The position numbers and the translations under genes are program-made. From NCBI GenBank assembly GCA_963669155.1, contig OZ022593.1, positions 11,278,796 through 11,342,795 of the forward strand: DNA of 64,000 nt. Direction: 5' to 3'. Below are positions 2,148 to 63,827 of the stretch, piece by piece. Numbering within the stretch: position 1 is the stretch's first letter; the number at the start of each line of letters is the position of its first letter. This stretch comes from Arbacia lixula. Its lineage: Eukaryota > Echinodermata > Echinoidea > Arbacioida > Arbaciidae. The notes beneath the pieces were generated by a model that ran no database searches, was not told the origin of the DNA, and was given only the letters and a program-made list of their open reading frames with translations.

Positions 2148-2236
2148 CTAACCCTCTAAGTCCCAACCCATGAATAGCACACTAACTATTACACTTATTA
2201 TAATCTTATATGCTCCCATGGGACTGAAAGGCTTAA
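2148..2236. mobile_element. Family T short unit (T1)
   Basis: An 89-bp unit opens with CTAACCCTCTAAGTCCCA and closes with TGGGACTGAAAGGCTTAA. The ends are partly complementary and TTAA-like, as in the other T units of the window. Confidence 0.5.
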
Positions 2237-2335
2237 AAGCCTAACTCTGTTCATATAATGCTACTTCTTATCCAGGGTGTCTTTCGTTGCTACAAGGTAG
2301 TTGACATCATTAGATTAGCATCAAGTTAACCGCCT

Positions 2336-2485
2336 GTGTCCCACAGGCAATAAACTGAGTGTTGATGCATATGACGCTTGGTCCATGCTTGGTCCTCAGA
2401 GGTTAAAACCACACAGTTCCATAGGCAATAAACAAGAGTGCTGATTCAAATGGGGCTTGCTGTGCTTGGTATACAGAGGATAAAC
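2336..2485. mobile_element. Two chained family T units (T2)
   Basis: Two related units (about 67 and 77 bp) share the junction TTAA at 2403-2406. Both carry CCATAGGCAATAAAC or CCACAGGCAATAAACTG, and the subfamily recurs at 11232-11382. The first unit begins GTTAACCGCC; the last ends GAGGATAAAC, where TTAA is degraded. Confidence 0.65.
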
Positions 2486-2708
2486 AGCCCTTTGGCGTAC
2501 ACTGCACAGGGTGTGTTTAGATCCAGATCATTCATGTAGGTAAAATGCAGTCCATATCAGAGAAGCCTTAGATCTACAAATCATATAAATCATTTACACA
2601 CAAACTCAGTATTTTAAATATCAATGCAATTTGCGACATAACATTTCGTTGGTATAGTACTTGCAGCAGTAGTACGTCTAAATCTCTGGTTGGAAAATAA
2701 ATAGTACA

Positions 2709-2845
2709 GGGACCTGTCTCAGAGAATGGCGTTCAATCGCAACTTGACTTGCAATTGATATCAATCGTAACTCTGTCCAATACAGTAGAGATGGGGGGTT
2801 GGCCTTGTGATCGATTTAGATCAAGCGCAACTCTTTATATGTACA
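2709..2845. mobile_element. Family D foldback element, copy D1
   Basis: Begins GGGACCTGTCTCAGAGAA and contains TCAATCGCAACTTGACTTG. The 3' half carries the degenerate reverse complement (GATTTAGATCAAGCGCAACTC). The better-preserved copy at 10880-11033 has the same block order. Confidence 0.6.
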
Positions 2846-3117
2846 GAATACCCATCACTGGTAAATTGGTACAGTATCAATGTCATTCTTGCCCAGTTGA
2901 TAGTTCATGTAAATGGACTGTCCATGCGTACCTAATGGTTCTTTTGCAACAGGATTGGAGATAGAGGCAGGTGTGATGTAGAGGGTGTATGCTCCACAAC
3001 TAGAGTGATAGAACGATCCTTTGGATTTGAACAAAAGAGGGTTCTGAGTATTCATTGAGCTGCTCTAGGTATTTCAAGTACCAGGCGGTATCTTTTGACT
3101 TACAGGTGGACAATTTC

Positions 3118-3195
3118 CCCCTGCTCTCTCAATGTTTCTCTCTCTCCAGTGACCACTGGTCTTTCGACTCTCCATTGAACTCGCCCTTCTTTGCT

Positions 3196-3227
<32 letters not shown>

Positions 3228-3305
3228 GCAATCTCTTGCAATCTCTCTCTTGCAATCTCTCTCTCTCTCTCACTCACCCACTCACTCTCTCTCTCGCAAT
3301 CTCTC

Positions 3306-3360
<55 letters not shown>

Positions 3361-3420
3361 CACCCACTCTCTCACACCCTCACTCTCTCTCCCTCTCTCT
3401 CTCTCTCTCACTCTCTTCTG
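3118..3420. repeat. (CT)n microsatellite with CTTGCAAT / CTCGCAAT interruptions
   Basis: A long CT tract, purest at 3310-3357. TTGCAATCTC or CGCAATCTC interruptions recur at about 3227-3303, forming a small minisatellite inside it. Frames across it are not genes. Confidence 0.95.
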
Positions 3421-5274
3421 CCTCGTAAAATATCGCTCCATTGGTCTCTTCTCACTATCTTTCTATCTGTCTGTCTGTCCCTCTTGTGCCCCACCCAGAT
3501 CCCTCTCCCTCTCTATCCATCTTTTTTCCCCATCTGTATAAGGGTGGTCAGACTTAAAATATTACTGAAATGTTGTTTTCCGACATTCTACTCACAAAAA
3601 TTGTGCATTAGCACTACCGTTAAATACCTAAAGTTGAAATATCTTGAATAGTATTGCCACTAAGGTGTATGCTCTCTGATGGCAGAGACAATATATGTGT
3701 TGTATAGCTTCTTGGTGCTTTCAATACAGTACCAAAACAGCCAAGTTCACAGGTCTATCAATCCCTTCTTCTCATGATCACACACAGAGATCTCTGATAC
3801 ACACACCCGTACATATAAACTGACACACACCAACATACTCACAAACACATACATGTATACAAACATGCACCATATACTCATTTTTTCTCACTGCTCCCAC
3901 CCTCCCTACAAACAAACGTCATCATGCAGCCCCTAAATCCACTCACGGACATCACGACCACCTAACCAAAAAATAATACAACCATCATCACAGCTCACCC
4001 CCACAAATTCTGAGCCGCCAATTATTACAATCACCTGCCCCTATTGTTCCCCACTAGCTCCCTGACACACAGTCGATTATTCTGTTACCGATACCCCCCT
4101 TTATATCCCATCACATCCTCCTTTCTTCCCCCCTCGCCTTATTGGCTCTGGGTGGCTCATGGGCCTGTCTTGAGGCCTCTAGCTCTGGCTAAGAAAAGAC
4201 TCGGGGAAGCGGAAGTAATGTGGATTGATAAGGGGATCAATAAGTATATAGCCCCAATGATTGGGAGCTCACCATTCTGGCAAGAGTAGCGGAATTTGAA
4301 AGGCGTCTTATCGAGGCTATGGGGAAGACCTACATTACGTGTGCACGACAAAGCCTAACTGATTTTCTATGTAGTCCGCTCACACATAAGATTAAACATG
4401 AGTAATAAAGTGGTATTTTGTGAGATGCGAGGAGGTGGCCTGAAGAACTATATGTGCTTAAGCAAACTCTTAAATCTACTTATATAGCTGATCCATATGC
4501 TAGGATTAATACTAATGAGAAAGATGTAACATTTTTAATGAGTAAACTTCATAATACCTTCTAGTAAGCTTCTTTTCTCTCCTCCACTCTTGCTCTTCAT
4601 CTTAACTTAATCTCTTCTCTTCTTCCATACTGCTATCTTTCCTTCTTTCTCACATCCCACCCTCTTCATACATTTCTTTTAGACAATCTCTCCTTCACCA
4701 TTTTCACTACCTTCCCCATCCCCACTCCTCCAGCGGCTTGTCCAGGAATCAGAAAACATCTTTAAGATGATCCTCCTTTCTTACATTCCATTTCACCAAA
4801 AATCACCACACCCCCATTGCCTCCTTTAAAAACAGGGTGTCCCATTTGCAAAATTCTTGAAACTCGTCAGGAATCAGAAGTATAAAAAAGTATAAAATCC
4901 CAGTCTTGGCTTCACAAACATTTTCAGGAAAAGTAAAAAAATATCCTTGTTTAGGTATGAAACGTACCAACCATAGCATCCATTCATAATTGTCCCTGTC
5001 AGCGTGTAATGCTGGCATTGCTCCAATTGAATGCATGCACTGTGGAGCGGACCGGTGCGGACCATAGAGCACAGCGGTCTCCGGTCTCTAGGCTATAGAT
5101 TTTTGGATGACCCGCTCAAATCCTCCACAAAATCTACTGATCGCTTTGATTTCACTCAGAGTCAGTTTTCAGTTCTGTCATTGGGAGGGAAGTTCTGATA
5201 CAGTACCTTCTTCCATTTTCCATGGTTTTTACCAAATTTCCTTTTTGCCCTTCAAAAGGGACACCCTGTCTATA
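3421..5274. other. Low-repeat spacer with pyrimidine-rich stretches
   Basis: Pyrimidine- and CA-rich DNA at about 3770-4140 and 4560-4740. A more balanced block at 4141-4380 carries a short open frame with GATTGATAAGGGGATCAATA and CCCAATGATTGGG palindrome-like sites. Another at 5035-5110 contains TCCGGTCTCTAGG. No splice-supported exon was found. The balanced blocks are candidates for regulatory DNA only by composition. Confidence 0.4.
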
Positions 5275-5641
5275 AAGGGCATATACTGTACTGGGATGGC
5301 AAAAAAGCCTTCAAAAGGTGATCGTGAGCAATCTCCTTGCAAATGGTCTTAAATGAGTGCATTGTCCAATTTAGAAACTTGCTGAAAGTTATTTGCCCTC
5401 AAATGATCCACATGTGGAGAATGTAGTGATTATTCTCAAAATTATCAAAATGTTCCAGCCGAACATTTTCAGGATTTGTAATCTAATCACTAATTTCTCC
5501 ACATGTTGATCATTTGAGGGCAAATAACTTTCAGCAAGTTTCTAAGATGGACAATATGTGAATTTAAGACCATTTGCAAGAAGATTGCTCACGATTAGCT
5601 TTTGAAGGCTTTTTTGTCTTCCCAGTACAGTATATGCCCTT
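5275..5641. mobile_element. Family A palindromic MITE, copy A2
   Basis: Complete 367-bp element. It starts AAGGGCATATACTGTACTGG and ends with the complement ..CAGTATATGCCCTT. It is flanked by TA on both sides (5273-5274 and 5642-5643); the left outer flank is TATA and the right is TTAA. The arms share CTTGCTGAAAGTTATTTGCC and its complement GGCAAATAACTTTCAGCAAG. It has no transposase. Confidence 0.9.
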
Positions 5642-5835
5642 TAAAACCATCTTCCTTGCTCGCTTGTCATTTTCACCACCATCTTCATACCCCCATCACC
5701 TCCTCAAGACAACCAAAGCCGCCACCTTGAAACACTCTGCCCCCTATCAGGGGTTGCTATTGAGGCCCGCCCGCCAAATCAATGGTACTTAGTTTGCGGT
5801 GAAGCAAGCCACTTAACAAAGGTGTTCTCCGATGA

Positions 5836-9429: not shown

Positions 9430-9691
9430 TGATGTTGATGATGAAATGAAGTAAAGTAACACATTTTAAGTGAGGCATAGAGAATTAGCCTCATTGCTAC
9501 AGAACATAAATAATGGCACATGTATACCTAGTCCATTGCATTGTATAGCACCGCTCTCAAGTGTGAGATAGGTTAATGGATTCTAGATACAGGTGTGCTA
9601 CATTCAAACCCCCCTTGTTCTGGGCCTCATGTTTTAAGATTCACCTGAGATCTCACCTGTCCTATTCTCCATCCCTCTTCACTCACTTGCT

Positions 9692-10140
9692 CCTTACTGG
9701 CCCAGTTTCCACAACACTGCACTGGATACTAGTTCTATCTGTCGGCTATGCTCTGCCTTAGAATTAGCCATGAACTTGACGTCTAATACATTTGATACTG
9801 TATTCCTTACTGACCAAATTTCCACAACATCACACCAGGTTTTAGTTTCATCTGTCATCTGTGCTCTGCCATAGAATTATCCATGGATTTGGCATCTAAT
9901 GCATTTAATACTGTATTCCTTACTGACCCAGTGTCCACAATGACATATCTAGTACTACTGTCTGTCATCTATGCTCTGCCACAGAATTAGCCATGATCTT
10001 GGCGTCTAGTAATGCTACATTCCTTACTGACCCAGTTCCCACAATGACACATATGATACTAGTTCTATCTGTTCTATGCTCTGCCATAGAATTAGCCATG
10101 AACTTGATGTCTAATGCATTATTTCAATATTGTATTCCAC
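9692..10140. repeat. Tandem array, ~113-bp unit, four copies
   Basis: CCTTACTG recurs at about 9692, 9805, 9918 and 10022, each followed by TCCACAA, a CTATCTGT or CATCTGT block, ATGCTCTGCC, TAGAATTAGCCATG and TCTAATGCATT. Spacings are about 113, 113 and 104 bp. Array-internal frames are not genes. Confidence 0.9.
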
Positions 10141-11231: not shown

Positions 11232-11467
11232 GTAACTCCCTCAGTCCCATAGGCAAGAAACTGAGTTGCTATTGATATCAGGCTGTCAGTGCATGGTACT
11301 GAGAGGGTTAACCAGTCCCATAGGCAAGAAACTGAGTTGTAATTGAGATGGGGCAGTCAGTGCTTAGTATTGAGAGGTTTAACTCTTTGTGTGCAATGAG
11401 GGTTTTTTCACAACTAAGACACACAATTCTGATAGAGCAGTAGTTTATTTGGCATGTGAAGGGTTAA
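11232..11467. mobile_element. Chain of three family T units (T3)
   Basis: TTAA-type junctions lie at 11232 (GTAA), 11308, 11379 and 11464, giving units of about 76, 71 and 85 bp. The first two carry AGTCCCATAGGCAAGAAACT and are near-duplicates. The third is a different subfamily (AACTCTTTGTGTGCAATGAG) that recurs at 63754 and, more distantly, at 19679. Neighbouring units share a single TTAA. Confidence 0.75.
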
Positions 11468-16126: not shown

Positions 16127-18022
16127 GCTAGCTCCGCTTTATCTACATCTCTCATCCCTGTCATCATCTTGTTCAATATCCCACTCTCTCCCCCTTCTCC
16201 CCCTCTGTCCCCATACTTCATTATGTTTCGAGATTAGCTGTATTACTAATTTTATGCACATTCAGTCATTTGTCTTCATTATCATGTTGATAACTGTAAT
16301 ATTCCTATTGCCATCAATATCGCATCTTTCCTGGAACATCTCTCGCTGCCTCTCTCTCTGCCTCTCTCTCTGCCTCTCTCAGTCTCTCTTTCTCCCTTTT
16401 TTCACCCCCCCACCCCACTTTCCCATTTACAAACAAAAAATGTCCATCTACAAATGGCAACATATACTTAAGCATCGATTTAAGAAACCACTAGGGATGC
16501 ACTCACTTAAAAAAATTACCCCTTGCCTAAATAGAAAATGACTTTCTCTCACTTTTGATACCACTCAGTATTTTTCGTACACCATAGGGAGCAGAATCAT
16601 CTTGAACAATCAGAGCTTCATGGAGTTCCCATGGTAACCAGAGGAGGAGACAACGTGACTTTAACTTCCTTAAAAGGTAATAAGGAGGGCAGAGCTAAGT
16701 GGGAACGGGAAGGAAATGGTGGAGGGGTGCAAACTTGCCCATCTTTCCCTTTCATTCTACAAAATCATCAGCTTTCAACATCCAAGAGAAATGTAATTCA
16801 ATTCCAATTCTTCTTTCTCCTTGTCTCTCTATCTTTCCATCTCTTTCTTTTCCTCCCTCCCTCCCTCTTTCACATATCTTGCCCCTAATTTTTCTACAAC
16901 AGACCATACATACGAACCTCTTCATTCTTGATGACTAACCTTTAAAACATATGAAACAAACACATGCCAGTATATACACACAGAGGAAAAAAACCCAACC
17001 TACACTAAAAGAGTTTTTCATGTTTCATACACACTTTGTGTGCCATACGAACTGCTACGCTATGGGGTTGGTGTGGACACAAATGCCAGAGTTACACAGA
17101 AGGAATTAATATTACTTGTATGATGATCCAAAGTTCAGTACAGGCAACATTAAGGTGAAGAGGAGCCTTATTTCCGATGGTGTAACTATAAAAAATGCAT
17201 TTCTGTCTACATTCCCCAACACAAACATAGAAAGCTAATCTTTAATTGATATACTATGTGAAGTGGCAAACACTCGTGTACCATATTGCCACCTGTTTCA
17301 ATAGACGAGGATTCATTACCTAATCAAAGGAGAAGGAAGAGATGCTGCGTCTTCAGATACCAGGCGATCAACTTTCCCAGGAGTACCTACTCCATCACAC
17401 CACGCCGGTACGATAGCGGTTACTTGATTTAATAGCGAATGTGGAGCTGTGTTCACATTGTCAATGAGAGCAATGTAAGAGAGTATTTTACCAAGAGCAG
17501 CAATGTTTGCAAAATGTTTTGTCAGAACACATAGCTTTAATGTAAAGTGCATCTCACACCATGTGGTGATAAAATTGTAGACATGTTGTCTCATAAATCT
17601 TTAAAAAGTTTAGCTAAAAAACAGCACAATGACCTGACCAACCCCTTCAATATAATCTAAATACTTTAACAAGACAGGTGGCTCCCAAAATGACTCAGGG
17701 TTATAAATCAGTGGCTACATCTCTATTAAAATTATGTATTTTATTGCCATGGTAATATATACAACTACATCTAAAACCTGCATAAGCAAGACCTGTACGG
17801 AAATTACCCTTGCAACACAAATCTCAGCAGCTTTCTCTAATTTGATATTTAAAACAAAATATAAATGTCTTTGTACCTGCATAGAGACAAAATATTTAAA
17901 CTCATGGCTATTTTTGAATTATCTCCATTCCATAGATCTACAGCTTTCATCATCCTAATGCACCAGAAGATATTTTGAATCCAGTTCTTCCAAAGATTAT
18001 TCTGAGAGATTACTAGCATATA
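16126..18022. other. Spacer with minor CT tracts
   Basis: CTGCCTCTCTCT repeats at 16350-16380 and pyrimidine-rich DNA at 16800-16870. A 92-codon minus frame (17316-17594) has protein-like composition near its end (GVGTPGKVDRLVSEDAA) but no clear acceptor, so it is not called. The rest is AT-rich. Confidence 0.4.
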
Positions 18023-18346
18023 ATGGTGCACACTAACAGGCCATCTATCGCCTTCTTAAGGGCCAGTGATGACACAATCCAGTCAGTCGTACAAATCTGC
18101 GAATGGCCGAATCACAGGACCCCAGTCATTGGATTTGTGCAAGAAAGTGATGTCATACATCCAGCCGTGGGACCTTACAACTGCAGAATCGTGGCAAGAT
18201 CGGGTCGTCTGCAGTGGCTTGTAGTATTCTGCCTGGAGCAGGTTTCCCACAGAGTTCCTTTTCAGAGATCCTGATCTTCCACTTGCTATTCTATGCTTAA
18301 CCCTCTGAACACCAAGCCATGGAGACCCTACTGAGTTACTACACAT
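18023..18346 (-). CDS. Possible coding exon or conserved block, unidentified
   Basis: A GC-richer island is open on both strands. The minus-strand frame (18083-18346, 87 codons) contains HDSAVVRSHGWMYDITFL and ends DLYD-stop; the plus-strand frame (18023-18274, 83 codons) is equally unbroken. No strong splice sites bound either. The 5' end of the minus frame overlaps a family T unit (18297-18376), so at most 18083-18296 could be coding. I do not recognise a family. A non-coding conserved element would look the same. Confidence 0.25.
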
Positions 18347-18376
18347 TAAATGGAGTCATGATACTGAGAGGGTTGA
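18297..18376. mobile_element. Family T short unit (T5)
   Basis: Opens TTAACCCTCTGAACACCAAG and closes ATACTGAGAGGGTTGA. The complementary AACCCTCT / AGAGGGTT ends are clear. Confidence 0.6.
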
Positions 18377-19678: not shown

Positions 19679-19768
19679 GTAACTCTTTATTTGCCATGTC
19701 TTTTTTTCTGCCTTTTATGCATGAAAATCCCAATGAGAATAAGCGTGTCGGGCACACAAATGGTTAAC
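19679..19768. mobile_element. Family T short unit (T6)
   Basis: Opens GTAACTCTTTATTTGCCATG and closes GGGCACACAAATGGTTAAC. It starts eight bases after family B copy B1. Confidence 0.6.
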
Positions 19769-26485: not shown

Positions 26486-28304
26486 GGATTTTACTCCACA
26501 AGAAAACAAATCACGATCTCACAAGGGCTCTTTGGAATTTCAGGGGGCTCTTTTTTTGTATTTCAGGGGCTACAACACACTCAGCCCCGGTGCATCTTTC
26601 TCACTGTGACCTAGAGTAAACCTTCCCTAAATGGATGCATTTTCACACCTTTAGTCCCACTAATAGGGTAGGTGGTCAATGACCGCCAAATACACAGTAG
26701 CACTAATTAGGATTTCATTGATTGCAAAAACTAATTATGGTAAGCGGGTATAGATCGTTATGCAATCCCAGTGTCAGTCATCTTAACAGCAGACAACAAA
26801 TCTATATTAATACTGGACATTGAGTAAGTGATCAACCCATAAGTCAGGAATCCTAATCCGCCCTTATACAACTGGGCCTTGATAACCCCATTGGCTTACT
26901 ACACATCTTCGTGCCTGGTATTTCGGCATGATGTTTTGTAGCTGTATTTTCATTTATGCTCACGATGAACATGTTTTATGTATTTCTTCAAAGCTTAAAT
27001 TTATGGAGAAAAACCACTGAAATGATAATACCTTCCACCCACACCTGCACAGTTATCTCGCATTCCTTAAGTTTGTTTGCACAAATTGTCGTTTTTGGTT
27101 CACAAAGTCAAAACCTGACTTGACATTTTGAAGCTGTTGCTATTCACACCAACACTTGGGCAAGTCCTTTAGTAGCTCTTTGGTGAAGCATGGCATAATC
27201 TTAGAATAGAACACTAGTATACTGACTACTAAGGCTGCACTAGCAATCAAGGCATTTCTTTCATGACCAATGTTATTTAATTCTCCATCTCAGCGTAAAT
27301 GTATATTTATTAATTATTAATTTCCAGTAAACTGCTCTTTTCAGTATTTGACGTAATACGATTTTGTACTCCACTTCAATTGCACAAAAAGCAACCAGAC
27401 TAACCTAGTATGATTCCAGTTGGATAACTCGTTCATCAGATTATGAACCAGGTCAACATTGGCGATATTGACAGATGCATGATTCACCTTTGTCGCAACG
27501 ATTGTATGAGGAACAAATGTGTGTTGAATCGTTACAAAGCTTTGTATTCAGAGAACATACATGACACACTTTCATACATAAAAACTGTTAATGATGGCAG
27601 GGTGAATGTGTGATAACTTTTGTGTACACCTGTAGCAAATATAAATAGGTTTTTCATTGGGGGAGAGTGTAGGAATGGGGGAGGGGGGGGGGGGGGACAT
27701 GCCCACCTCTCCCCAATTCAGAGTACATGGTACAATGCATTGTACGTGCAATAAATGTGACAAATTTTGATGAAAGCCCTTTTAGTTTTAGGTGTCATGG
27801 GCAGGTGTTTTTAATGAAATATGTAATACACCTGCAACAAGTTCATATACATGCATATCCAGGCATTTCTAAGAGGGGGGGGGGGGGGGATACATTCTGC
27901 CTCTCCCTCCACCCTTTTCTAACCAATAATCCATTCTCCAATTTGTTTGTTTTTTCTCAGTGAAAATATAAACAAACCTTTTTTCATAAAGTATTTTTCA
28001 TTTTTATGAGAGACAACTTTACACATAGCTAAGTCATTCCCCATCCCCTACCCAATAACCTTTTATCCTAAAACCCCCTCCCCCTTCAGTCTCTGGAGTT
28101 GCCCCTAGTGTGACCACAATGGTGTGAGTCGTTGATGATATTGGCAAACTAAAGTACGTTGAGATGGCCCCGTTCTCCACGCTGAAATTTACAAGGGAAG
28201 CACGGGCTCGCCTTACACCCCGGAGACTTCATATCAGCCGCACTTTTGCAAAATAAATCTATTTCTCAAATAAGCTTGTTTTCTAAACGCTCACTGGGGG
28301 ACTG
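26486..28304. other. Spacer with two long poly-G runs and a T-like fragment
   Basis: Poly-G runs at 27683-27696 (14) and 27875-27889 (15). ATTGGCTTACTACACATCTT at about 26890 matches the last unit of the T chain at 35436-35516. A balanced block at 28090-28250 (GATGGCCCCGTTCTCCACGC) has no exon signal. The rest is AT-rich. Confidence 0.45.
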
Positions 28305-28540: not shown

Positions 28541-29477
28541 CATTTTCACAAGTTAACTGCACTTCCATTTCTTGAGAAACCTCCCCCATACAAACATGAA
28601 CAAAACGACTCAAGCAAACTTAAACTCCACATCCAATAATAATCCACAGATTGACATCCTCCCAAAGTGTATTCAAACACATAGATATCCAAAGAGTGAA
28701 CACAGAATTATCTGGAAACCTAGATTCTGAGACCGAAGTCTGTGCTTTTGGAATTAGGACATCTCTTAATGTTTAAAACCACAATGGAGCATTGACAAGA
28801 TTTTGGGGTGTGTGCCTGAATCAATCCTGTATCCAGATACAGATTAATCCCTCCTCTGCTAGAAAAAAGTATAGCACTAGAAATGTGTGTATTAATGGTG
28901 CCAAAAGCGTCTACATTCATGATGCTAAAGACGGCCCGTATGGCGCCAGATGAAGGTAGCTAACTGCCGACATTTTACTAGCTAGAAAATAGTAACACTT
29001 CTGGTAACACCATGTGGTTGTATTCTTTCAGGATATTTGACCCGCCTATGGGGTGAAAAAAGGAAAGGAAGGAGTGAAAAGAGGAGAGAATATTTTTCAA
29101 TATATTTCTAAAATACTTGCACAAGACTGTTTTTAGCTTTACTTTTTGGTGTTTATACCCAAAATACATGAGAAATTGAAGTAGAAGGAGAGGGTGGTAA
29201 TAATGATAATTGTGAGTTAGTCACAAAGTAGTTATACCGAAAAAGAAAGACAGAAAGGAGAAATGCAAAGTGTGGTGAAAAAATAGTAAGAATAGCAACT
29301 AACTGTAAGTTTCTTTCAATATCAGTGAGATAGCATCAATACATTTTGCGTAAAAGTTTTGTGAAACTATATTAAGGGGCAGGAATGGTAATAATCATGG
29401 GCTATAATCATGGTAGAACCATTATGCCATCATCACCGGGTCTAGATTTTGTTTTATTTCATTATTTTGTTTTTCAG
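28541..29477. other. Low-repeat spacer
   Basis: Contains CAGATTAATCCCTCCTCTGC (28841), with a GGATTAATC-type homeodomain core on the minus strand. No exon. The 3' end (29452-29477) is the strong T-rich acceptor of the candidate exon that follows. Confidence 0.4.
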
Positions 29478-30557: not shown

Positions 30558-31229
30558 ACTGGTAATTTGGTATTAAATGAAAACGATTAAAAGCAAGGAA
30601 GAAGAAGATTGATAACTATGAAGACAACAAATAGCCAATCAATATGATGAGATCCAAAATCCATAAGCCGAACAAGCATGAAGTAAAAAAAATGCTGTAA
30701 TAATATGCTCTACCCCTCAAATTAAAGATTAATTCCCCCCTCACACCTCCATCATCACTTCTCATCATCAGTCCACACTTCCATCCCCAATGTTTGTCTG
30801 GACCAAATCCCCATCCTCCATCTCTCAGACTTTCATCCCCCTCCACTCTCTCTCCTCGATCCGTCACCATCAAATCCACCAATCGCCACCCTCCATCTGG
30901 TCCGCGGCGCTCGGCTTTTGTTATCGCGATCTTGTGAATCCTGCACTTGCTCTATCCCCTCATCTGTCTGGTCTTAATCTCACGCAGGCGTACCTTGTAC
31001 AGGTACCTGTAGTATTGTCCCCACCCCTCCCCCTTCCACCTTTTCCCATCTCTTTTTCTTCAATGTTCAGTCAGCATGTCTTGTTCATTCATTCACTCCA
31101 CCTACTTTATATTAACCATTTCAGTTTCAAAGGTGCAGAAAATATGTGATTATTCAATGGGCTTTACCTGCATCTCTCCTCGCATCTACCTCTGCTCTAT
31201 CCTCTCTCATCAACTCTTAGTCACCCACC
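30558..31229. other. Unassigned spacer
   Basis: AT-rich to 30720, then pyrimidine-rich. CAGGCGTACCTTGTACAGGT then ACCTGT at 30985-31010 is an imperfect palindrome. Confidence 0.4.
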
Positions 31230-33557: not shown

Positions 33558-35129
33558 TGGTCTCTGCTATGTGAGGTTAGCTTTCATGGAGTTGACGGAG
33601 AATTTAGATGTTGTGCATCATTCTTCCTTACGCCATCTGCAGGGTTTGTGATAGCTCTTACAGTGCGCAGAGGCAGTCTTGCACAATTGTGTCATGTTCT
33701 CTCAAGACATGTATCTACACACAATCCATGTCTCAAGAATAAGGAAGCTATTCTGCAGTTTTAAATTCACTGAATGAAGCCACCACAGATGGCACATAGC
33801 ATCTACTTCCATTTTCATCCCTACATATGCCCAAGCGTTTACTGCTATTTTCACCGCTTCAACTCCAACCGTTTTTTAAGAGCGAGCAAAAACAACAAAA
33901 CATCTCCCCAACGATATTTCCTTACCGCACTGAGCGACAGCGACGACGACCGTGTAGCATGATCACTATGGAAACGTGCCGTCATCCCCCAATCCTACGG
34001 ACCGAACCCGAGCCGACTGGCGCAAACTTCACACCTCCGACAAAGACCTTTCTCAATCATCCCCAACTACCAAAACACATTTACTTCCCTCCTCTCGCCA
34101 CCCCCATTGTACCTCTAACCACCGGTATTGTCCCCCCTCCACACACCCCTTCTCTCTTCACCTTGGCCCTTCTGCGATATTATTGTGACAATATTTGACA
34201 TATTATTTCATTTTATCACTGCTCCGGCCTTCTCTTCTCTCTCTATCTCCATCTTTCTTTTCATGTAATAGATCGGAGGCAGCTGGTTAATTATTTCTAC
34301 CGCTGGACCCAAATATTTATGCTGATAATGTTTGCTAACTGCTAATAGAGGCAGGTAATGATTCTCACCGGTGCAAGCGATTCTAACGAGAGATGCATAT
34401 GGCTGCAAAGGGAAGGGAAGAGAAGGGAACAGAATGGCTCTTTACCTGGGAGAAAGGTGAAATGGAAGCGGCGATATACTTGATGGATAACGCTTAGCTC
34501 ACCAATCCCATGGGGTTACACCTCTGCCAAACAAAATGCTGATGTATACGATATTACTGGTGTGAAAATGCAGCAGGGGCGCACATAACAAGCTAGGCTT
34601 GAAAAAGTGTATGGTATCTTTTGTTCTTAAATGTTTGCATCTCGTAGCTAATTTGTAACTCAGCTGGTTTTCAGTCCAAACTTTGTAGATAATGTAACTG
34701 TGAAGATAACATATAATTTGCTATTTACTTGTGTCATTTTTCAACACTTTGTGTGTGGTATTACAGTAGTAACTTTAGGTATCATACAGATCCAAGTGCT
34801 ACTTTTATCAAGGTTGGGTAATATGAAGAAGGCTTGAATACTCAAGCAGTGCATGTTCCATGAATGATGCAGAACACAAAAATGGAAAGTAATGATCATT
34901 CAAATCATGTAATAAAAATGAATTTTTCTGATGAACTAACAGTTCTGAAAATGTACTCATTAACAGGGGTTCTTTGTACTTCCGAAGATGTCCACCATTA
35001 GTGATTTTCACATACTTCATAGTGATGCAAGCAATATGACTAAGACCGTTAAGTCTGTATCACCGATGTGTTCATCCCTATACTAAATCTATGACAAATA
35101 TTCAATGAGAATTTATACACTTCCCAGTG
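33558..35129. other. Spacer with balanced block and T-like fragment
   Basis: A balanced block at 33820-34060 (CACTGAGCGACAGCGACGAC) is open in two frames without splice support. CTGCCAAACAAAATGCTGATG at about 34533 is a fragment of the T subfamily also present in the first unit at 35130. A GGGAAGGGAAG purine patch lies at 34411. Confidence 0.4.
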
Positions 35130-35516
35130 TTAACTCTTCTCCTGCCCAACAAAATGCTGCTCTATGGGATTTGTGTGCATTACTGGTGCAATATATCATG
35201 TAAGGAGTATCCAGAGAGTTAACCCTTACATTCCCAAACTTTGAAAACCACACTTACAACATACGCCATGCCAATGGTAATGAGAGTTAACCCTTACATT
35301 CCCAAGCTTTGAAAAACCACATTGGTTTACAACATATGCCATGCTCATGGTAATGAGAGAGTTAACCCTTACACTCCCAAGCTTTGAAAACCACATTGGC
35401 TTACAACCTACGCCATGCCAATGGTAATGAGAGAGTTAACCATTACATTACCAGGCCTTGAAAACCACTTTGGCTTACTACACATCTTCATGCCTATATG
35501 GCAATGAGCGAGTTAA
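35130..35516. mobile_element. Chain of five family T units (T7)
   Basis: TTAA junctions occur at 35130, 35219, 35287, 35362, 35436 and 35513, giving units of about 89, 68, 75, 74 and 77 bp. Unit 1 is one subfamily (CCCAACAAAATGCTGCTCTA). Units 2-5 are a second one (CCCTTACATTCCCAAGCTTT, GCCATGCCAATGGTAATGAG). Adjacent units share a single GAGTTAAC junction. Confidence 0.85.
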
Positions 35517-36699: not shown

Positions 36700-36792
36700 T
36701 TAAATCCTTTATGCGCCAAGCAAAATGCTGTTCTATGGGGTGTGTGCATATTATTCAAGTTTGAATATATCTATGGCGCATAAAGGGTTTAA
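36700..36792. mobile_element. Family T short unit (T10)
   Basis: Starts TTAAATCCTTTATGCGCC and ends GGCGCATAAAGGGTTTAA. This is the clearest case of inverted ends (about 17 bases with few mismatches), with TTAA at both edges. Confidence 0.8.
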
Positions 36793-38870: not shown

Positions 38871-40199
38871 CTGTCTGTTTTCCTATATTTTGTGTATACC
38901 TCCTTTCTCTTCACTCTTATTCTCTCATACCTGTCTGACTAGGTATTACTACATCTGTGTCTCCCTGTTTTCCCCATTTGTTTGTTGTTTGTGTGTCTGT
39001 CTGTCTCTCTGTATGAGTGTATGTGCGTCTCTCTTTTTCTCAATCTCTCTGCCCTCTCAATAAAGATGCACATATGCGCACTACAGGTAGAATCTGCAAT
39101 AAAGATACTTTTCAAATCTCTCTCAACCTTCAGGTTTACAACAGGTCCCAACCTCCCCTTCAATCAATCAGCACAGCCCAAGTTGTGGCAGCTGGCCCCA
39201 AACCATACCATGAATCCTTCCAATACCCAACATACTCCATGAAACTGTCTTCAAATATCAAGTTCTAGTTTCCTCCTTCTTCAACTCTGCTGGCAACTGA
39301 TAGAAATACTGCAGAAGGGCTTAGTGCCCCAATTCCACCAGTCAAACGATGAATATTTACTACTTCTATATCAACACGTACCGCTTGGGAACGTGATAGG
39401 CAGCCCGTCCCTTGAAAGCAAAACTGCATACAAATACTCGGCTTCTCACTGACACCTGTATGTTAGAAGATGTTGTCAAAGATGTTATTATTCTTGCACA
39501 TCAACATGTATGGCTAGGAAGACATCACCCCCCGCCCCCACACCTGAAAGTGAAACTGCTCTCTAATATTTCAATCCTCCCTGACACCTGTACCTGATAA
39601 CATTAGTACTAATGTGCTTTTGAACACTATACATGTAAATGTTGCATGAAATATAACCTGAAACATAATTCTAAACCTAACCCTGTCCCTAACCATAATC
39701 CTCTCCTGATAATCTAATTATAAATATAACCCTCAACACAATTCTAAAATCTATCCCTGACCCTACCCCTAAGCCTATTTTGTAGTATAATTCATCTAAC
39801 TACATGCTTTCTGGATCACTTTCATCATGCTTTGCCACAGAAATATATTTATATCGATAACAACATTGCAGTGTTCATATAAATCATGTCATATGCGTAT
39901 ATACGATGATTGTGTCACGTTTTTAAGGATTAAGTATCAGTATAAAGGGCTGCAGCTAATGATACAATCACAGCATCAGAATAATTCCAGATCACCCAAT
40001 AAACCATTTCAGTACCACACATATCAATTACAGAATAGTTTATCACCTATGTGACTGAACGAGTTAAATAAATGGAGGGGTACAGTATACATATATTCTT
40101 ATCCTTTATCCTCCCCTTCCATAGTATAATGCTCAGTTCCAAGCAACCCAAAGCAACTCCCCATGTGTGTTCAGTTGCCCAGAGGCTACCAATGTAGAT
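38871..40199. other. Spacer with CCCTAA-like patch
   Basis: At 39660-39780 short runs such as CTAAACCTAACCCTGTCCCT, AACCATAATCC, ATAACCCTC and CCTGACCCTACCCCTAAGCC resemble a degraded CCCTAA-type array. The rest is mixed and has no exon. Confidence 0.45.
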
Positions 40200-41420: not shown

Positions 41421-43434
41421 CTCAAAATTGCACTTGATTGCAAACAATTTACTCAACAGCAACCTAACCATGGGTAAAAATAAAATGTATACCCAGGAGC
41501 TATTTACCTGTTGTCATGAAATGAACATTTTGAACTAGATTTTCTACATTACACTTTATTAGGATAAATCATTTTTTTTTTACAATGGTTCTTTTGTTAT
41601 TTGCAGGGTCTCCATATTACATTATTACATTGCGGTGCTAAATTACCCTGGGCTCCTGTTTAAGTTTGTCAGTGAGCCTAAAACATTTCTTTACTTATGA
41701 CTGTAAACAATCTATTTTTAGAGAATATATATATACATCTTTAATTGTTATCATGTGAATCCATGTTATGAACTAACAACACAATTCCCCATATGAATGG
41801 ATACATCGCATAAAACAAAACGTCACACCTGTACTATGCGCTGCAATATGGTTGGGTGACACCTGATATAAAAACAGACACCGCTCGTGTTTGTTCTCTG
41901 CTCTCGCTGCCCTTGTCAATATTGACTTCCAACCCCGTAGAAACAAAAGGAAAACACAGATTTTCCCATCCCCCATCTCCCACGCACATTACACTTTACA
42001 GTATGGTGGTATCTATAGGAGTATAAGAAACATTACATGCCTGCACCTGTACATTGTACAAGACCCTGAGGTTTGCAATGTGTTGTAAAGAGTGGTTCAT
42101 GGATTTAAAAAAAAATCAAAATGGAAACTTTTGTCATATTTTACATTGCATGTGACCATGATATCCAAGTAATAAGAAGCAATATAATCCAAAACTTATG
42201 AAATATGTGATTAGCCAATGGGTTTTCCAGGCTTGGTAGTGAGAGTGTTAACAAACACTTGATACATATAGATATGCAAAACTAGTAACAACTACCATGC
42301 TTGGTTATGGTTCATTTGCCATATTTGGAATGATAACAAAGGATAACCCCTATATTTGAATTAACCCATTATCCCATAAGCCCTTGCCCTGGGGACTGAG
42401 AGCGCGTTCCCTTTTGAAGAGGGAAATCCTACAAATCTCATCATATTCACTTGTGGAAGACATCGGTACATGCATGCTAATTGTGCAATTGGTCCCGCAT
42501 TACAAATGAGTCTGATCGGGTCTTCAGGGATTCTGCTCACAAAGAAAAGCGATCTTTCAGCCACCCGCCCGCCCGCCCGCCAGGACGCCCGGCTGTCTCA
42601 CACCGCAATCGAGAGGGCACGAGGTTCAAAGCGGTAATGATCATCAAATCTGCATCGATATCTTTCACCGATTTGATTAAACCTTTTTCTTTTTCAAGGA
42701 TGGAGAGATTTAGCGTGGTGCCAGATGGTTATAAAACCTCAATTTGATCTCAGAAACTACCAATGGGGGGATCTTTTGTCAGAAAAAGATTTCTTGTTCA
42801 CCAAAGCACCTAACTCCAATAGGATAACTTTGTTAGACAGATGCTTTGTATTGAATGTTCGCACTGAAATGCACTTTTAAAATCCCCAGTGGGGGAATAG
42901 CCCGCAGGTAATAGCTATTAGTAGGTAATCATGAGGGAATGATTGTTTTGTTGGTGTAACAAGTTCCCAATCACTGACACACTCAAGCTAAAGAGAGATA
43001 GATGAAAACGATTGAACTGAACTTGACTTCTAAATAGTTGCAGACCTCCCACACACACACACCTTCTCAAATTTATGGTAACTCGTACAAACCGCTCCTC
43101 TAAATGCAAATCTTGATCATGATAATATAAATAATCTCTTGATCAGAAATTTGTACTTTAGTCCAGCATTTACAGAGGCTTTCTTTAGAACATGAGGTGA
43201 TTAGGGAAGAGAATTGGTTGCTTTCAACTGATCGATGATGAATTTCAAACCTATTTTGCACACATGAATATGTTTTAAATTCATGTTCTTATACCTTCTA
43301 TTACAGACAATATTACTAAGGAAATGAAAACGAAAAAGAAAGGATGGTATTATTGTCTTGACTTAAGTCATATGTTGCGGAAAGGGGATAAAATACAAGT
43401 TACTTTTGTCATATGGCTACCAATTACATGTACC
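41421..43434. other. Mostly low-repeat spacer
   Basis: A T-like end (GGCTTGGTAGTGAGAGTGTTAA) closes at 42251. The balanced block at 42480-42740 contains a (CCCG)n run at 42563-42581 and TTCACCGATTTGATTAAACC. No splice-supported exon; open frames are short. Confidence 0.4.
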
Positions 43435-46846: not shown

Positions 46847-47077
46847 CACTACAGCTCAAAGGAATTGGCAAAGGGAAAGGAAAAGGGAAGAAAGGGGAGG
46901 ACCCGCAGTTTTAAACCGCGGTATATTTTGTCCGGTTCAGCATGAAACATGATGCTTGTTAGGCTAGAGCATCGTGTTTCATGCTGAACTGGACAAAATA
47001 TACTGCAGTTCAAAACTGTGGTTCCTTCCCTTTCTTCCCTTTCCCTTTCCCTATGCCAATTACTTTGAGCTGTAGTG
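46847..47077. mobile_element. Family B palindromic MITE, copy B3
   Basis: Complete 231-bp palindrome with TA at 46845-46846 and 47078-47079. Same ends and purine/pyrimidine arms as B1. Frames across it are element-derived. Confidence 0.92.
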
Positions 47078-48012: not shown

Positions 48013-48103
48013 TCAACTCCTTCTCTGCCAGACTCCATACCGCCCTATGGGAATGGTGTACATTACCGGTGCAATAATGCCTTAATGGTGCATAAAGAGT
48101 TAA
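48013..48103. mobile_element. Family T short unit (T12)
   Basis: CAACTCCTTCTCTGCCAGAC at the left and GGTGCATAAAGAGTTAA at the right; nearly the same unit as 56673-56763. Confidence 0.75.
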
Positions 48104-51566: not shown

Positions 51567-51868
51567 TTAACCTTTAGCACTTGTGGACTATTTCATCACT
51601 AACATACACTGCAGCTCAAAGGAATTGGCATAGGGAAAGGGAAAGGGAAGAAGCCACAGTTTTAAACCGTGGTATATTTTGTCCAGTTCAGCATAAAACA
51701 TGATGCTTTTTAGGCTGAAGCATCGTGTTTCATTTCTGAACAGGAAAAAATATACGGCGGTTTAAAACTGCAGCTCCTTCCCTTTCTTCCCTTTCCCTTT
51801 CCCTATGCCAATTCCTTTGAGCTGTAGTCCCATAGAGTAGCATTTTGTCTGCCACATAAAGGGTTGAA
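51567..51868. mobile_element. Family T unit (T9) split by a family B insertion
   Basis: The left half TTAACCTTTAGCACTTGTGG (51567) and the right half CTGCCACATAAAGGGTTGAA (51850-51868) make one T unit of about 80 bp when B4 (51607-51828) is taken out. The right half matches the CAAAATGCT..CTATGGG subfamily at 35130. Confidence 0.6.
51607..51828. mobile_element. Family B palindromic MITE, copy B4
   Basis: Starts CACTGCAGCTCAAAGGAATT after TA (51605-51606). The right end stops at GAGCTGTAGT without the last G and TA, joining CCCATAGAG directly. The left arm has lost one GAAAGGGAAGG repeat. Nested in T9. Confidence 0.88.
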
Positions 51869-56672: not shown

Positions 56673-56763
56673 TTAACTCCTTCTCTGCCAGACTCCAAAC
56701 TTCCCTATGTGAATGCTGTGCATCACCAGTGTAAAAATGGCTCAATGGTGCATAAAGAGTTAA
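56673..56763. mobile_element. Family T short unit (T13)
   Basis: TTAA at both ends; TTAACTCCTTCTCTGCCAGA to GGTGCATAAAGAGTTAA. It matches T12 closely. Confidence 0.8.
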
Positions 56764-60435: not shown

Positions 60436-60566
60436 ACCCTTGCTGGTAAACAATAGAAGTATTCCCTCAAGTAGGGGGTCAATACTCTCCATGGGCATGG
60501 CCTCATTCCAGGCTTTGTTTTGAAAATTAAAATGTGCAATGTAACCAGGGTCCGCTGATCCAGGGC
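60436..60566 (-). CDS. Candidate minus-strand exon, unidentified
   Basis: On the minus strand a good acceptor (CTTCTTTCAG) lies just before 60566. The frame entered after two bases encodes 43 residues including AHFNFQNKAWNEAMPMES, balanced and protein-like, then meets TGA at 60433-60435. A weak donor (AGG|GTTGAG) lies next to that stop. Another frame stays open for 109 codons (60324-60653) across the same DNA, so the reading is ambiguous. No family is recognised. It may be a real exon, a pseudogene fragment or chance. Confidence 0.25.
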
Positions 60567-61032
60567 CTGAAAGAAGGCTACTGGAATCAACATGATAATT
60601 TGCACTCTTAGGTTTACATCCTGCAAGATGCTATGATAGTTGCTTGATTTCAATCACATTTTTAGTACAAATTTGAAAACAATCAAATCCATACCAACTA
60701 CATAAAGCCTGAATTGAGGCTATGTATCATTTAAATCACGCCACAGGTTTTGAATGCATGAAGGAGGATGGGAATACGTTTGTATTGTAGTGGTATGGGT
60801 CCACTGACCAAGAGGATAGTTGTTCGAAGCTCTCCAAAAATACATGAACAGACAGCAAACTGTTGAGAGGGCAATGACATGAGCCCTGTACAAAGCATGA
60901 AATTAAAGATTATAAAGGATCAGGCTACCAAACATATTCTTGTAATCTGTGTCATGGTTGATGTATTGACAATTGGTGACATTTCCACATGATTACCTGT
61001 ACTTTCATGTGCAACTGTACACAAATCTTACC
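60567..61032. other. Unassigned spacer
   Basis: AT-rich; no feature recognised. Confidence 0.4.
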
Positions 61033-61034
61033 TA

Positions 61035-61245
61035 CACTACAGCTCAAAGGAGTTGGCATAGAGAAAGGAAAAGTCAAAAGGGAAAAAAGGGAAGGAGCTG
61101 CAGTTTTAAATCGCTGTATATTTTGTCCAGTTCAGCATGAAACATGATGCATTAGCCTAAAAAGCATCATGTTTCATACTGAACTGCGGCTCCTTCCCTT
61201 TCTTCCCTTTCCCTTTCCCTATACCAATTTCTTTGAGCTGTACTG
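61035..61245. mobile_element. Family B palindromic MITE, copy B5 (shortened right arm)
   Basis: Starts CACTACAGCTCAAAGGAGTT with TA at 61033-61034; ends GAGCTGTACTG with TA at 61246-61247. The right arm lacks the ACAAAATATACCGC..TTTAAA part, so it is 211 bp rather than about 231. Confidence 0.9.
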
Positions 61246-61339
61246 TACATTATGGTGGATTATTTCTACAGTATGCAACTGATGTAGTATTCTACTCTAC
61301 ATGCATCATGTTATGCCATGATATCAACATTTAGAAGGG

Positions 61340-61409
61340 TTTTTTCACAAAACAATGAATCCACAAAATGTTTACAAACATTTTGTGGATTCATTGTTTT
61401 GTGAAAAAA
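61340..61409. repeat. Perfect 34-base palindrome with a 2-base loop
   Basis: The left arm 61340-61373 and right arm 61376-61409 are exactly complementary, with AC between. The arms read from TTTTTTCACAAAACAATGAA inward to CCACAAAATGTTT. It is not similar to families A-L in the window. Confidence 0.92.
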
Positions 61410-62847
61410 TAAAAATCATGAGGTATCATGATCACAGTACAAACTTAAAACACATTCTTCCACACTTTAACAATGTACATAATATATGATATCAACATCA
61501 GTAAATTACTGTTTTGTTCTAATACTGGACTCCATTTGTATCACTGTCACATTTTTAATGATAAGTAATACAAACAGATCACATTTAAAGCACATTTTTT
61601 AAAATGTTTATGGATCATTATGATAATCATGCATTTTACCTGAATGGTTGACAGGCTTATCATAGCACCTACAGTATATTGCCTGTAGTACCTACAGTTT
61701 TCACAATTTACATTAGAACCGTTTATATTTGTCTAAAATAGCTTTGAACAAGAAATGCCACCAAGTAGAATTCTACATGTATTGAGTGCAATGTGCTGTA
61801 TTACTCTTAGTATGTCTAAATAAATATAGCTCCAGGCACAGCCATAGTGAATAGGTTCATCAAACTAGGATGAACAATGACCTCATTAAGCACTGAGTTG
61901 TATACAGGAATCACAGCCTAATTGCTCCATCAATTAAGTGTTCCTAATAGCCTCCAGTCATCCATAACACTAATATGACAACTGACTTAAAGCATACATA
62001 CATGTGTAGCTTCTAGCCTACCGGTATATCCAAAATTCAATCAATTCATCTATAAAATTTGTGCATGTGACTATTTGTACATCTGGAAGTTATAAATAAA
62101 TATATATTGTAGAAAACAAGTGACTTGTATACATATGCATGCAGTGAAATAATATGGGAGATTTTATAAATGAAATATGTAAAATAGCTGTAAATTGTGT
62201 AACAACATAAAATTGCTAAACTGAAGGACATTTTTTCATCACTTCCCTATCCAGTGTCTCTGGTATGCTTTTGTCCACTAGACTTTGCACAGAACACCTC
62301 AACTTCTTTTCATAATCTAGTGTATTACCTACTGCCCTTGTACAATACTATCCCAATCACCTAAAAGTCTATTCCTATCCTTTGCAATCAGTGTCACAAG
62401 CATTTGTTGCATATCACAAGATTTCAAAATCCCACAAAAACAAAAATCACATGTCCTTGATACATAGTACACACACACACACAGTCATGCACACACCTAT
62501 AACAGGACACTGCACTTGTACGACGCATACAATCGTCTACCACCACCACAAAAGAAAAATACTAGGATAAACATTTTGCTTGGCTGCCACACAACCGAAA
62601 GAGGAACTATTTCCTGTAGATGACTGGGAATGATTCCTAATGACCGCTTCCATTTATTACCGGACCCCCGTTGTTCCGCAGTTGTCCTGTGGCCGCTCAA
62701 AGGGTGCCGAAAAAAACACCTCGATGGTGACATCAGGTGCCCACGCACCCAGCTACCCCCTTTTTTTTTATTTCTTCTGGTGCCACCAAATCGATGACAA
62801 AGGCTAGTAAGGTTTGAGCACCGGTAAGGAATGGTACGTTCATAGTC
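61410..62847. other. AT-rich spacer with one GC-richer block
   Basis: (CA)n of modest length at 62469-62480. A GC-richer block at 62640-62760 (TACCGGACCCCCGTTGTTCC, GCCCACGCACCCAGC) has no exon signal. Confidence 0.4.
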
Positions 62848-63090
62848 TGTTTTCCAGGCACTTCAACATTTCAAATCTAAACTAAATAAATACAGTCTAG
62901 AATTCATAAGATTACCATATATGGTCACTTCATCATTTGTAATCTATTGTTTCCACAGCTCGTATTATCACCCTCCTCTTTTCTCAGTCCATCCGAAGAA
63001 GAAATTGTGAATGATTAGTCTACTGCAGCCAAACCCCATTTATATAACTCTTTTGTTTAGAAATTCTCAACAGCCTGGATGATAGGCAAG
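62848..63090. mobile_element. Family F foldback element, copy F5
   Basis: TTTTCCAGGCACTTCAACAT at the left; CACCCTCCTCTTTTCTC loop and GAATGATTAGTCTACTGCAG, CTCAACAGCCTGGATGATAG at the right. The left arm is decayed. Confidence 0.7.
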
Positions 63091-63753
63091 GCATGCTCAT
63101 TATCAGACATCTGTGTGCCTTTGTACTGTACGACTATCGAGCAGGATATTAAATCAATCGTGCTGGCAACAAAGGATGATATGTACATTCATTGTTCACT
63201 GGTTTGATTAGATTTTAAAAGCTTTCTAATGAGACTTTGTTGTATAAATGTATAAACTGTGCGGTTTAATTTAGCTTAAATATTTATGCTTCTGGTGGTT
63301 GTGGTTATGTTTAGGCTTTCTCACATAGTGAGAAGGAATCCATGTGGATAAATTAGGTAACAAAGGATATTGCAATTTATCTACCATTGCCATCTATCAG
63401 TAAAATAGTCTTATTTCAATAAGATTCTGTAAAGCAGGAAGGACAATGCTAAAAGTGTATACACTGCGCTCTTATTTCGAATAAATAATTATATCACTAG
63501 TACCCACAATCCCACATTCATTATCTTCTGATATTTTTCAAGACACAGTTGGCGCCTCATTAACTGTACAACGGTGAGCCTTTTTCTCTAACGAGCAAGA
63601 AAGCCACGTGGCTACTGCAGGCAACAAAGAATGGTAACATCTTATATTATCATCAGTGGGTTTAAAGTTGTGATGGTGTCTCAGGTTTCTCATTTGTAAT
63701 AATTGTCATATCAAACTTTATCTGTTTATTGTTCTGCCAGGAAAAACAATGAC
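63091..63753. other. Unassigned spacer
   Basis: AT-rich; no feature recognised. Confidence 0.4.
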
Positions 63754-63827
63754 CTAACTCTTTGTGTGACTTTTTCACAATTAATATTCCCATTGAGGAC
63801 TAGTTCAACTGGCAAACAAATGGTTAA
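63754..63827. mobile_element. Family T short unit (T14)
   Basis: Opens CTAACTCTTTGTGTGACTTT, like the third unit at 11379, and closes CAAACAAATGGTTAA, like 19679-19768. Confidence 0.65.

What the first reader, a model, noticed from the sequence alone, without database searches (positions are those of the whole stretch)
2148..63827. Family T: a swarm of 65-90-bp units bounded by TTAA-like ends
At least 15 short units open with TTAACYC or TTAACTC and close with GRGTTAA or GGGTTAA, but their middles fall into several unrelated subfamilies (CATAGGCAAGAAACT; CCCAAGCTTTGAAAACC; CTGCCAGACTCC; AACAAAATGCTGC; CTCTTTGTGTG). Conserved ends with variable middles is what very small transposons or end-captured fragments look like. 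At under 95 bp they would be among the smallest MITE-like units.
Basis: partly seen in the sequence, partly recalled or inferred. Interest (0 to 1): 0.7.

Follow-up and report, generated by a model that had tools for sequence, protein, structure and literature searches.

The report
Tiny piggyBac-type MITEs in TTAA-linked arrays
The window holds many copies of two very short non-coding jumping-DNA families of the piggyBac type that sit exactly between TTAA sites and often form head-to-tail chains sharing single TTAAs; it is a variant of something already described in corals, with unusually clear anatomy.

Summary
In the window 18 inward-facing pairs of an 18-bp end (TTAACYCTYTNNNTRCCA) lie 60-100 bp apart; randomised sequence gives 0.25 (one pair is spurious). 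Only 6 units have the literal ends. The five "unrelated" middles fall into two old, dispersed families: A (~91 bp) and B (~78 bp). The genome encodes many piggyBac transposases (120 matches), and 3 of 11 loci read show TTAA-flanked ends around one, the best matching the unit end at 14 and 13 of 15 sites. Best reading: piggyBac-type MITEs. Of 20 arrays classified, 17 are same-family head-to-tail, none clearly same-family head-to-head, 3 mixed or ambiguous, so same-family chains look like tandem duplication and mixed ones like insertion at a neighbour's edge TTAA. Closest precedent: coral CMITEs (PMC2872659). No empty site and no specific mobilising transposase were shown. Not the smallest: human MADE1 is 80 bp (PMC9062482).

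The parts
1975..2053 (-). degenerate unit, B-like
   Evidence: end pair 12+12 of 15; HMM B E=1.5e-5, but it was a seed of that HMM
2148..2236 (-). degenerate unit, B-like, matches both strands
   Evidence: end pair 13+13; HMM B E=2e-5 on both strands, seed
2326..2407 (-). B unit (CACAGG/CATAGG branch), first of a 2-unit array
2404..2484 (-). B unit, second of the array, shares 4 bases with its neighbour; outer edge decayed (TAAA)
11232..11311 (-). B unit (CATAGGCAAGAAACT branch), first of an array; outer edge decayed (GTAA)
11308..11382 (-). B unit (same branch), second of the array; about five bases lost at one end
11379..11467 (-). A unit sharing one TTAA with the B array (heterotypic junction)
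18297..18376 (+). single B unit
19679..19767 (-). single A unit beside a 245-bp palindrome
35130..35222 (+). A unit (AACAAAATGCTGC), first of a five-unit chain
35219..35290 (+). B unit 1 of 4 (CCCAAACTTTGAAAACC)
35287..35365 (+). B unit 2 of 4
35362..35439 (+). B unit 3 of 4
35436..35516 (+). B unit 4 of 4; array ends at TTAA
36180..36259 (-). single B unit
36701..36791 (+). single A unit
40000..40067 (+). short B-like unit, 68 bp
   Evidence: E=3e-6, seed
48013..48103 (+). single A unit (CTGCCAGACTCC)
   Evidence: 86.7% identical over 90 bp to 56675-56764, alignment ending within a few bases of the TTAA edges
51567..51867 (-). A unit split by a 245-bp palindrome at 51605-51828
   Evidence: right part alone HMM A E=2e-7; joined flanks E=9.9e-12; left flank alone only E=0.11
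56673..56763 (+). single A unit (CTGCCAGACTCC)
63754..63827 (-). shortened A unit, 74 bp
17032..17107 (+). degenerate A unit
   Evidence: HMM A E=3e-7
26862..26916 (+). B fragment
   Evidence: HMM B E=8e-7
28844..28907 (+). weak A fragment
   Evidence: HMM A E=7e-4
31112..31168 (-). weak B fragment
   Evidence: HMM B E=6e-4
34522..34585 (+). weak A fragment
   Evidence: HMM A E=1e-4
42199..42251 (-). B fragment with one intact TTAA end
   Evidence: HMM B E=3e-6

Best explanation
Family T is two old families (A ~91 bp, B ~78 bp) of non-autonomous piggyBac-type miniature transposons. Shown: copies are dispersed, have an 18-bp inverted end TTAACYCTYTNNNTRCCA on both sides, and lose similarity at the TTAA; the genome encodes many piggyBac transposases, and some full elements have TTAA-flanked ends of the same general kind. 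Inferred: a piggyBac transposase recognised the ends, cut the units out and pasted them into TTAA sites, the TTAA being the target duplicate. Shown: units form chains in which neighbours share one TTAA. Inferred: same-family chains arise by local tandem duplication, most simply by slippage or unequal exchange between the two flanking TTAAs of one unit, which adds exactly one unit plus one TTAA, then grows by ordinary unequal exchange; mixed A/B chains arise when a unit inserts into the TTAA at the edge of another.
For: Paired ends 18 vs 0.25 expected. Pairwise identity among 32 near-full copies is 0.51-0.79 in the outer 20 bases inside the ends and 0.23-0.37 in the five bases just outside; the highest outside value (0.37) is upstream of B, where array neighbours raise it. 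HMM hits in 264 kb with none in reversed sequence. PF13843 piggyBac transposase: 120 matches, many with open frames and no stops; 0 of 14 control genomes. L025 protein matches piggyBat 9c0f at 3e-48 and transposase 6x67 at 1e-28; PF13843 in three of three proteins scanned. Paired TTAA ends around the transposase: L025 389-3979, L029 580-3869, L034/L036 748-5976, scoring 13+12, 11+11 and 14+13 of 15 against the unit end; a TTAA in randomised sequence reaches 13 in 7e-4 and 11 in 2.6e-2 of cases. Chains: 1377 vs 0. Of 20 arrays (the first 50 listed matches), 40 of 40 units match HMM A (6) or B (34) at E<=0.01, none used to build the HMMs; 17 are same-family head-to-tail, none same-family head-to-head by the shuffle threshold; four further arrays in my loci are head-to-tail. 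Mean identity within the 17 arrays 0.91 vs 0.79 between arrays. A published coral end CCCTTTCACTGCCA (CMITE family VI, PMC2872659) fits the unit consensus.
Against: No empty TTAA site was found: joined flanks of 39 unit blocks against the ~320 kb in hand gave no clean empty copy. No transposase-bearing element was found whose sequence resembles A or B beyond the ends. Eight of the 11 transposase loci examined gave no convincing pair of ends in the stretches read, and L029's ends match the unit consensus weakly (11+11). Several unit and array edges are not intact TTAA, which decay explains but does not prove. In 90 kb not chosen for hits, inward pairs (7) barely exceed outward (4). Whole units (68-93 bp in the window) are shorter than the 98 bp (35 + 63) reported as sufficient ends for the T. 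ni piggyBac (PMC7351741, passages), so a standard synaptic complex on one unit is not obvious.
Confidence: 0.85

Rival explanations
1. The units are monomers of dispersed satellite or minisatellite DNA that merely contain TTAA in the monomer; single copies are remnants.
For: Many units do lie in head-to-tail arrays with period about 70-87; a transposon feeding an emerging satellite is reported elsewhere (PMC4079207, search listing and abstract start only).
Against: Single copies with unrelated flanks end at TTAA on both sides; the four arrays in my loci consist of whole units in the TTAA register, though some edges are decayed (TCAA, GTAA, TTTA), whereas satellite remnants should start at random phase; paired inverted ends would be unexplained.
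Confidence: 0.07
2. The units belong to another TTAA-targeting superfamily (Kolobok or Sola3-like) rather than piggyBac.
For: TTAA is also the target of Kolobok (PMC6004289, passages), and Kolobok-like palindromes are present in the same window. TTAA use by Sola3 is recalled, not looked up.
Against: Kolobok ends start AG/RR (PMC6004289); the unit ends start CCC/CTC, and CCCTT and CCCTC are among the listed piggyBac end motifs (PMC10813416, passages). A transposase-bearing piggyBac element in this genome has nearly the same ends. Kolobok and Sola transposases were not searched for.
Confidence: 0.07
3. The chains come from repeated independent insertions at edge TTAAs (insertion hot spots), not from tandem duplication.
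For: Three A/B junctions in the sample, against about 1.3 expected from edges being 46 of 1571 TTAAs (arithmetic mine); among mixed A/B junctions orientation varies: three same-strand, two opposite. A B unit in L008, and a weak B-like fragment in L006 (E=0.013), share a TTAA with Kolobok-like palindromes.
Against: The same-family arrays classified, 17 and 4, are all head-to-tail, which random orientation would give with chance about 5e-7 (arithmetic mine); identity within arrays is higher than between on average. C2:17279634 is ambiguous and could be an opposite-strand B pair. Only the first 50 of 1377 matches could be seen.
Confidence: 0.08

Closest known systems
CMITE families I-VI of Acropora corals (PMC2872659; parts 1-3 of 4 of the text read)
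   Same: piggyBac-type, TTAA target duplicate, ends mostly CCCTTT..., short (96-108 bp), several families, tandem arrays attributed by the authors to replication slippage rather than independent transposition
   Different: No sequence comparison with A or B was made; CMITE interiors are conserved across families while ends vary, here the ends are shared by A and B and the interiors differ; units here are shorter (68-93 bp in the window). Whether CMITE arrays share one TTAA per junction could not be seen (figures not held).
Full piggyBac elements of the same genome (L025, L029, L034+L036)
   Same: TTAA flanks; ends TTAACCCTTTCCTGCCCA, TTAACCACTTGACTGC, TTAACTCTTAGTGTGCCA
   Different: 3.3-5.2 kb with PF13843 transposase sequence; no A or B unit body found in them, similarity seen only in the outermost bases
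MADE1 (human Hsmar1-derived MITE, 80 bp; PMC9062482, passage)
   Same: complete paired-end miniature element of about 80 bp
   Different: mariner ends; TA target (recalled)
T2-MITE / Kolobok of Xenopus (PMC6004289, passages)
   Same: TTAA target, MITE
   Different: AG/RR termini, not CCC/CTC

Membership tests
piggyBac superfamily MITE | TTAA at both edges, similarity ending there | tested here: met
   identity falls to background just outside the TTAA on both sides, 32 copies; some edges decayed
piggyBac superfamily MITE | inverted ends beginning CC[C/T]T or CCCTT/CCCTC | tested here: met
   consensus TTAACYCTYT; left ends read CCCTTT (A) and CCCTTA or CCCTCT (B), right ends often CTCT, so met for one end and approximate for the other; motifs from PMC2872659 and PMC10813416
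piggyBac superfamily MITE | no coding capacity | tested here: met
   units are 68-93 bp in the window
piggyBac superfamily MITE | transposase source with matching ends in the same genome | tested here: inconclusive
   transposases abundant; one element matches at 14 and 13 of 15 sites, but similarity was not seen to extend inward
piggyBac superfamily MITE | empty single-TTAA site in an allele or paralogue | tested here: inconclusive
   39 joined flanks against ~320 kb, none clean; no alleles or related species available
Kolobok MITE | AG/RR terminus next to TTAA | tested here: not met
   unit ends start C
CMITE | the conserved ~75-bp internal region of CMITEs | not tested
   the published consensus was read but not aligned to A or B
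ordinary satellite DNA | arrays start and end at any phase of the monomer (expectation recalled) | tested here: not met
   four arrays in my loci begin and end in the TTAA register, whole units, some edges decayed; four arrays only

The most novel reading that the evidence does not exclude
A short transposon's own target duplicate works as the hinge that turns it into a satellite: the two flanking TTAAs of a single unit drive exact tandem duplication, so each array is a chain in which every unit remains a complete, potentially mobile piggyBac-type element, and several hundred such arrays arose in one genome (about 550 if 20 arrays per 50 listed matches holds for all 1377, my extrapolation). 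A second bold point: units of 68-93 bp moved although they are shorter than the ends reported to suffice for the T. ni piggyBac.
Probability: 0.3. Interest if true: 0.6.

Novelty: new variant of a known kind. Interest (0 to 1): 0.42.

Why it matters
It gives a clean case for how dispersed transposons become tandem repeats: the repeat junction is a single TTAA, identical to the target duplicate, at over a thousand exact junctions. It also bears on the lower size limit for a movable piggyBac-type element. Both are testable in one genome plus a relative.

Tried and rejected
Rejected: (1) five unrelated middles, since A and B absorb the 17 paired units of the window (three weakly). (2) End-captured host fragments, since interiors are conserved between copies. 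(3) The 48-bp tandem at L005 as a member: its monomer contains TTAACTC and GGGTTAA and its left edge lies at a TTAA, but its right edge does not, so it was left out as doubtful. (4) The pair 51793-51867 as drawn; the unit there is split by a palindrome. (5) The apparent spanning matches: L013/L014 are duplicates of one another holding the same unit, and L008 vs window is an alignment running a few bases across the joint beside a palindrome. (6) The N20-45 genome search (425 vs 366 control) is nearly uninformative because that spacing misses the units.

Units that do not fit: some inward pairs in the loci are not A or B at E<1e-3: L007 2899-2964 (no match listed), L008 6704-6759 (E=0.52), and the 47-bp pairs in L010, L011 and L012 (E=0.044).

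Led nowhere: paper search for a recalled Xenopus end motif (0 papers; a related search, listed general piggyBac papers and PMC2872659 again); a search for CCCTTTG with piggyBac listed no paper that looked relevant; transposase loci L026, L027, L028, L031, L032, L033, L035 gave no convincing end pairs, and L030 only a left end. Searches for print on such arrays; by listing, only PMC2872659 was close. The single-unit genome count (N51-79) was asked for many times and never answered, so the share of units that lie in arrays is unknown. The organism was not identified.

Selection and in-sample points: L005-L015 were chosen because one search had hits there; L016-L023 were chosen without looking; L024 adjoins the window; L001-L004 (about 3 kb each) were left out of the counts. 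HMMs A and B were built from window and locus units, so their hits on those units are in-sample; the 40 units were not. For counts, L011, L012 and L014 were dropped as duplicates of L010 and L013. In one search one chain per array was used, 20 arrays grouped by eye from the 50 listed matches of 1377.
Full report
WHAT WAS CHECKED. The literal motif of the finding occurs 6 times against 0.08 expected. Single end motifs are not or barely enriched (12 vs 12.4; 16 vs 7.6). Pairing is what stands out: with the 18-bp consensus TTAACYCTYTNNNTRCCA, 18 inward pairs at 60-100 bp, 2 outward, 9 same-direction, 0.25 inward expected. With 45-130 bp the counts inward/outward are 20/6 in the window, 12/1 in 110 kb chosen for hits, and 7/4 in 90 kb not chosen for hits, so the signal is thinner elsewhere. 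I wrote the consensus after seeing some units, so I rely more on the tests below.

TWO FAMILIES. Aligning the units gives A (12 copies aligned, about 91 bp, starting TTAACCCTTTGTGTGCCAGAC and ending GGCACATAAAGAGTTAA) and B (18 copies aligned, about 78 bp, starting TTAACCCTTACATTACC or TTAACCCTCTCAGTACC and ending GAGAGTTAA or similar). Mean difference from the consensus is 23% and 26%, so the copies are old, or the families are mixtures of subfamilies, or both. Profile searches of the window plus 20 loci (264 kb) gave 50 hits at E<1e-3 (count), none in the reversed sequence; after removing overlaps and duplicated loci 46 units remain, 23 A and 23 B. Density is 27 in the 64-kb window, 5 in 80 kb chosen without looking (L016-L023), and 5 in the 10 kb next to the window. 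The window is therefore rich; five hits in 80 kb would scale to some 40,000 copies in the genome, a very rough figure (my arithmetic). A few inward pairs in the loci match neither family (see Tried and rejected).

BOUNDARIES. For 32 near-full, non-redundant copies, pairwise identity is 0.51-0.79 in the outer 20 bases inside the ends, partly lower further in because of indels, and 0.23-0.37 in the five bases immediately outside both edges; the upstream side of B is highest because array members have B neighbours.

TRANSPOSASE. The genome has 120 piggyBac transposase matches (PF13843; lower bound), many with long open frames. Of 11 loci read, three show paired TTAA ends around the transposase: L025 (3591 bp, TTAACCCTTTCCTGCCCA), L029 (3290 bp, TTAACCACTTGACTGC) and L034 with its continuation L036 (5229 bp, TTAACTCTTAGTGTGCCA and TTAACTCTTAGCCTGCCC). 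Against the unit end they score 13+12, 11+11 and 14+13 of 15; a TTAA in randomised sequence reaches 13 in 7e-4 and 11 in 2.6e-2 of cases. In L034 the coding sequence appears as two separate ORFs of 290 and 382 aa; I did not examine why. The other eight loci gave no convincing pair (one, L030, has a left end TTAACCCTTGTCATGCCT). So the enzyme family and end type are present; the particular mobiliser of A and B is not identified.

CHAINS. In my loci, 10 junctions join neighbouring units through one shared TTAA or its decayed form: 7 same-family, all same-strand, in four arrays, and 3 A/B, also same-strand (two of the ten have a few end bases missing, read). Genome-wide, the pattern of two units sharing one TTAA matches 1377 times, the reversed pattern 0 times. 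The tool lists the first 50, on contigs 1 and 2, which I grouped by eye into 20 arrays; one (contig 2, 1080224-1081519) spans about 17 lengths of 76 bp, with some steps missing from the exact list. From one chain per array, all 40 units match HMM A (6) or B (34) out of sample; 17 arrays are same-family head-to-tail, none same-family head-to-head, 3 do not pass the shuffle threshold. Of these 3, two are A/B on opposite strands and one (C2:17279634) is ambiguous, with weak B matches on opposite strands. Mean identity is 0.91 within the 17 arrays and 0.79 between arrays, with overlap (lowest within 0.76, highest between 0.95); the between value takes the better strand.

MECHANISM. Insertion at TTAA by a piggyBac-type transposase is the best-supported route for single copies. 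T. ni piggyBac integrates at TTAA and excises without footprint (PMC7351741, abstract and passages). For same-family arrays, 21 of 21 classified arrays being head-to-tail (17, 4) speaks for tandem duplication. The junction being one TTAA suggests that the two flanking TTAAs acted as the short homology; that step is inferred. For mixed chains, edges make up 46 of 1571 TTAAs in the sample, so about 1.3 junctions among 46 units would arise by insertion at random TTAAs against 3 seen; no special targeting is needed. One B unit (L008) and one weak B-like fragment (L006, E=0.013) also share a TTAA with a 370-bp Kolobok-like palindrome, another hint that edge TTAAs are reused.

COMPARISON. Coral CMITEs (PMC2872659, parts 1-3 of 4 read) are the nearest known thing: ~100 bp, TTAA, mostly CCCTTT ends, tandem arrays. 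This finding is best called a new variant of that kind. It differs in shorter units, ends shared between families, and a defined one-TTAA junction at genome scale; whether CMITE arrays have the same junction I could not see. It is not a size record, as 80-bp MADE1 elements exist (PMC9062482, passage). The unit length below the 98 bp of reported sufficient T. ni ends (PMC7351741) is the most puzzling point and is unresolved.

LIMITS. No empty site was shown. No second haplotype or relative was available. The single-unit genome count did not complete.

Noticed in passing
window 1-308, 5273-5644, 31663-32035: About 370-bp palindrome (arms 87% and 94% complementary in the two whole copies) with ends TTAA|AGGGCATATACTGTAC in most copies seen, Kolobok-like by its TTAA flank and AG start (PMC6004289); further copies in L006, L008, L016, L019, L023, L024, L031. 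One shares a TTAA with a B unit (L008), one with a weak B-like fragment (L006).
   Followed up: partly
window 19435-19675, 35917-36162, 46842-47082, 51605-51828, 61033-61250: About 245-bp palindrome with ends TACACTACAGCTCAAAGGAATTGGC and no TTAA at its edges; one copy splits a family A unit.
   Followed up: partly
window 40554-41326 and 9691-10120: Tandem repeats with periods 240 (3.3 copies) and 113 (3.9 copies).
   Followed up: no
window 510-567, 771-877, 3199-3416, 23306-23589, 28306-28537, 31233-31497: Many long CT/GA microsatellite tracts; not compared with other genomes.
   Followed up: no
L005 5409-5555: 48-bp tandem repeat (3.0 copies) with TTAACTC and GGGTTAA in the monomer; left edge at a TTAA, right edge not. 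It mimics the family T motif or is a decayed relative.
   Followed up: partly
L027, L033: piggyBac-like transposases with 557 and 566 aa open frames, 86% identical to each other; further matches with 557-aa open frames at several other places.
   Followed up: no
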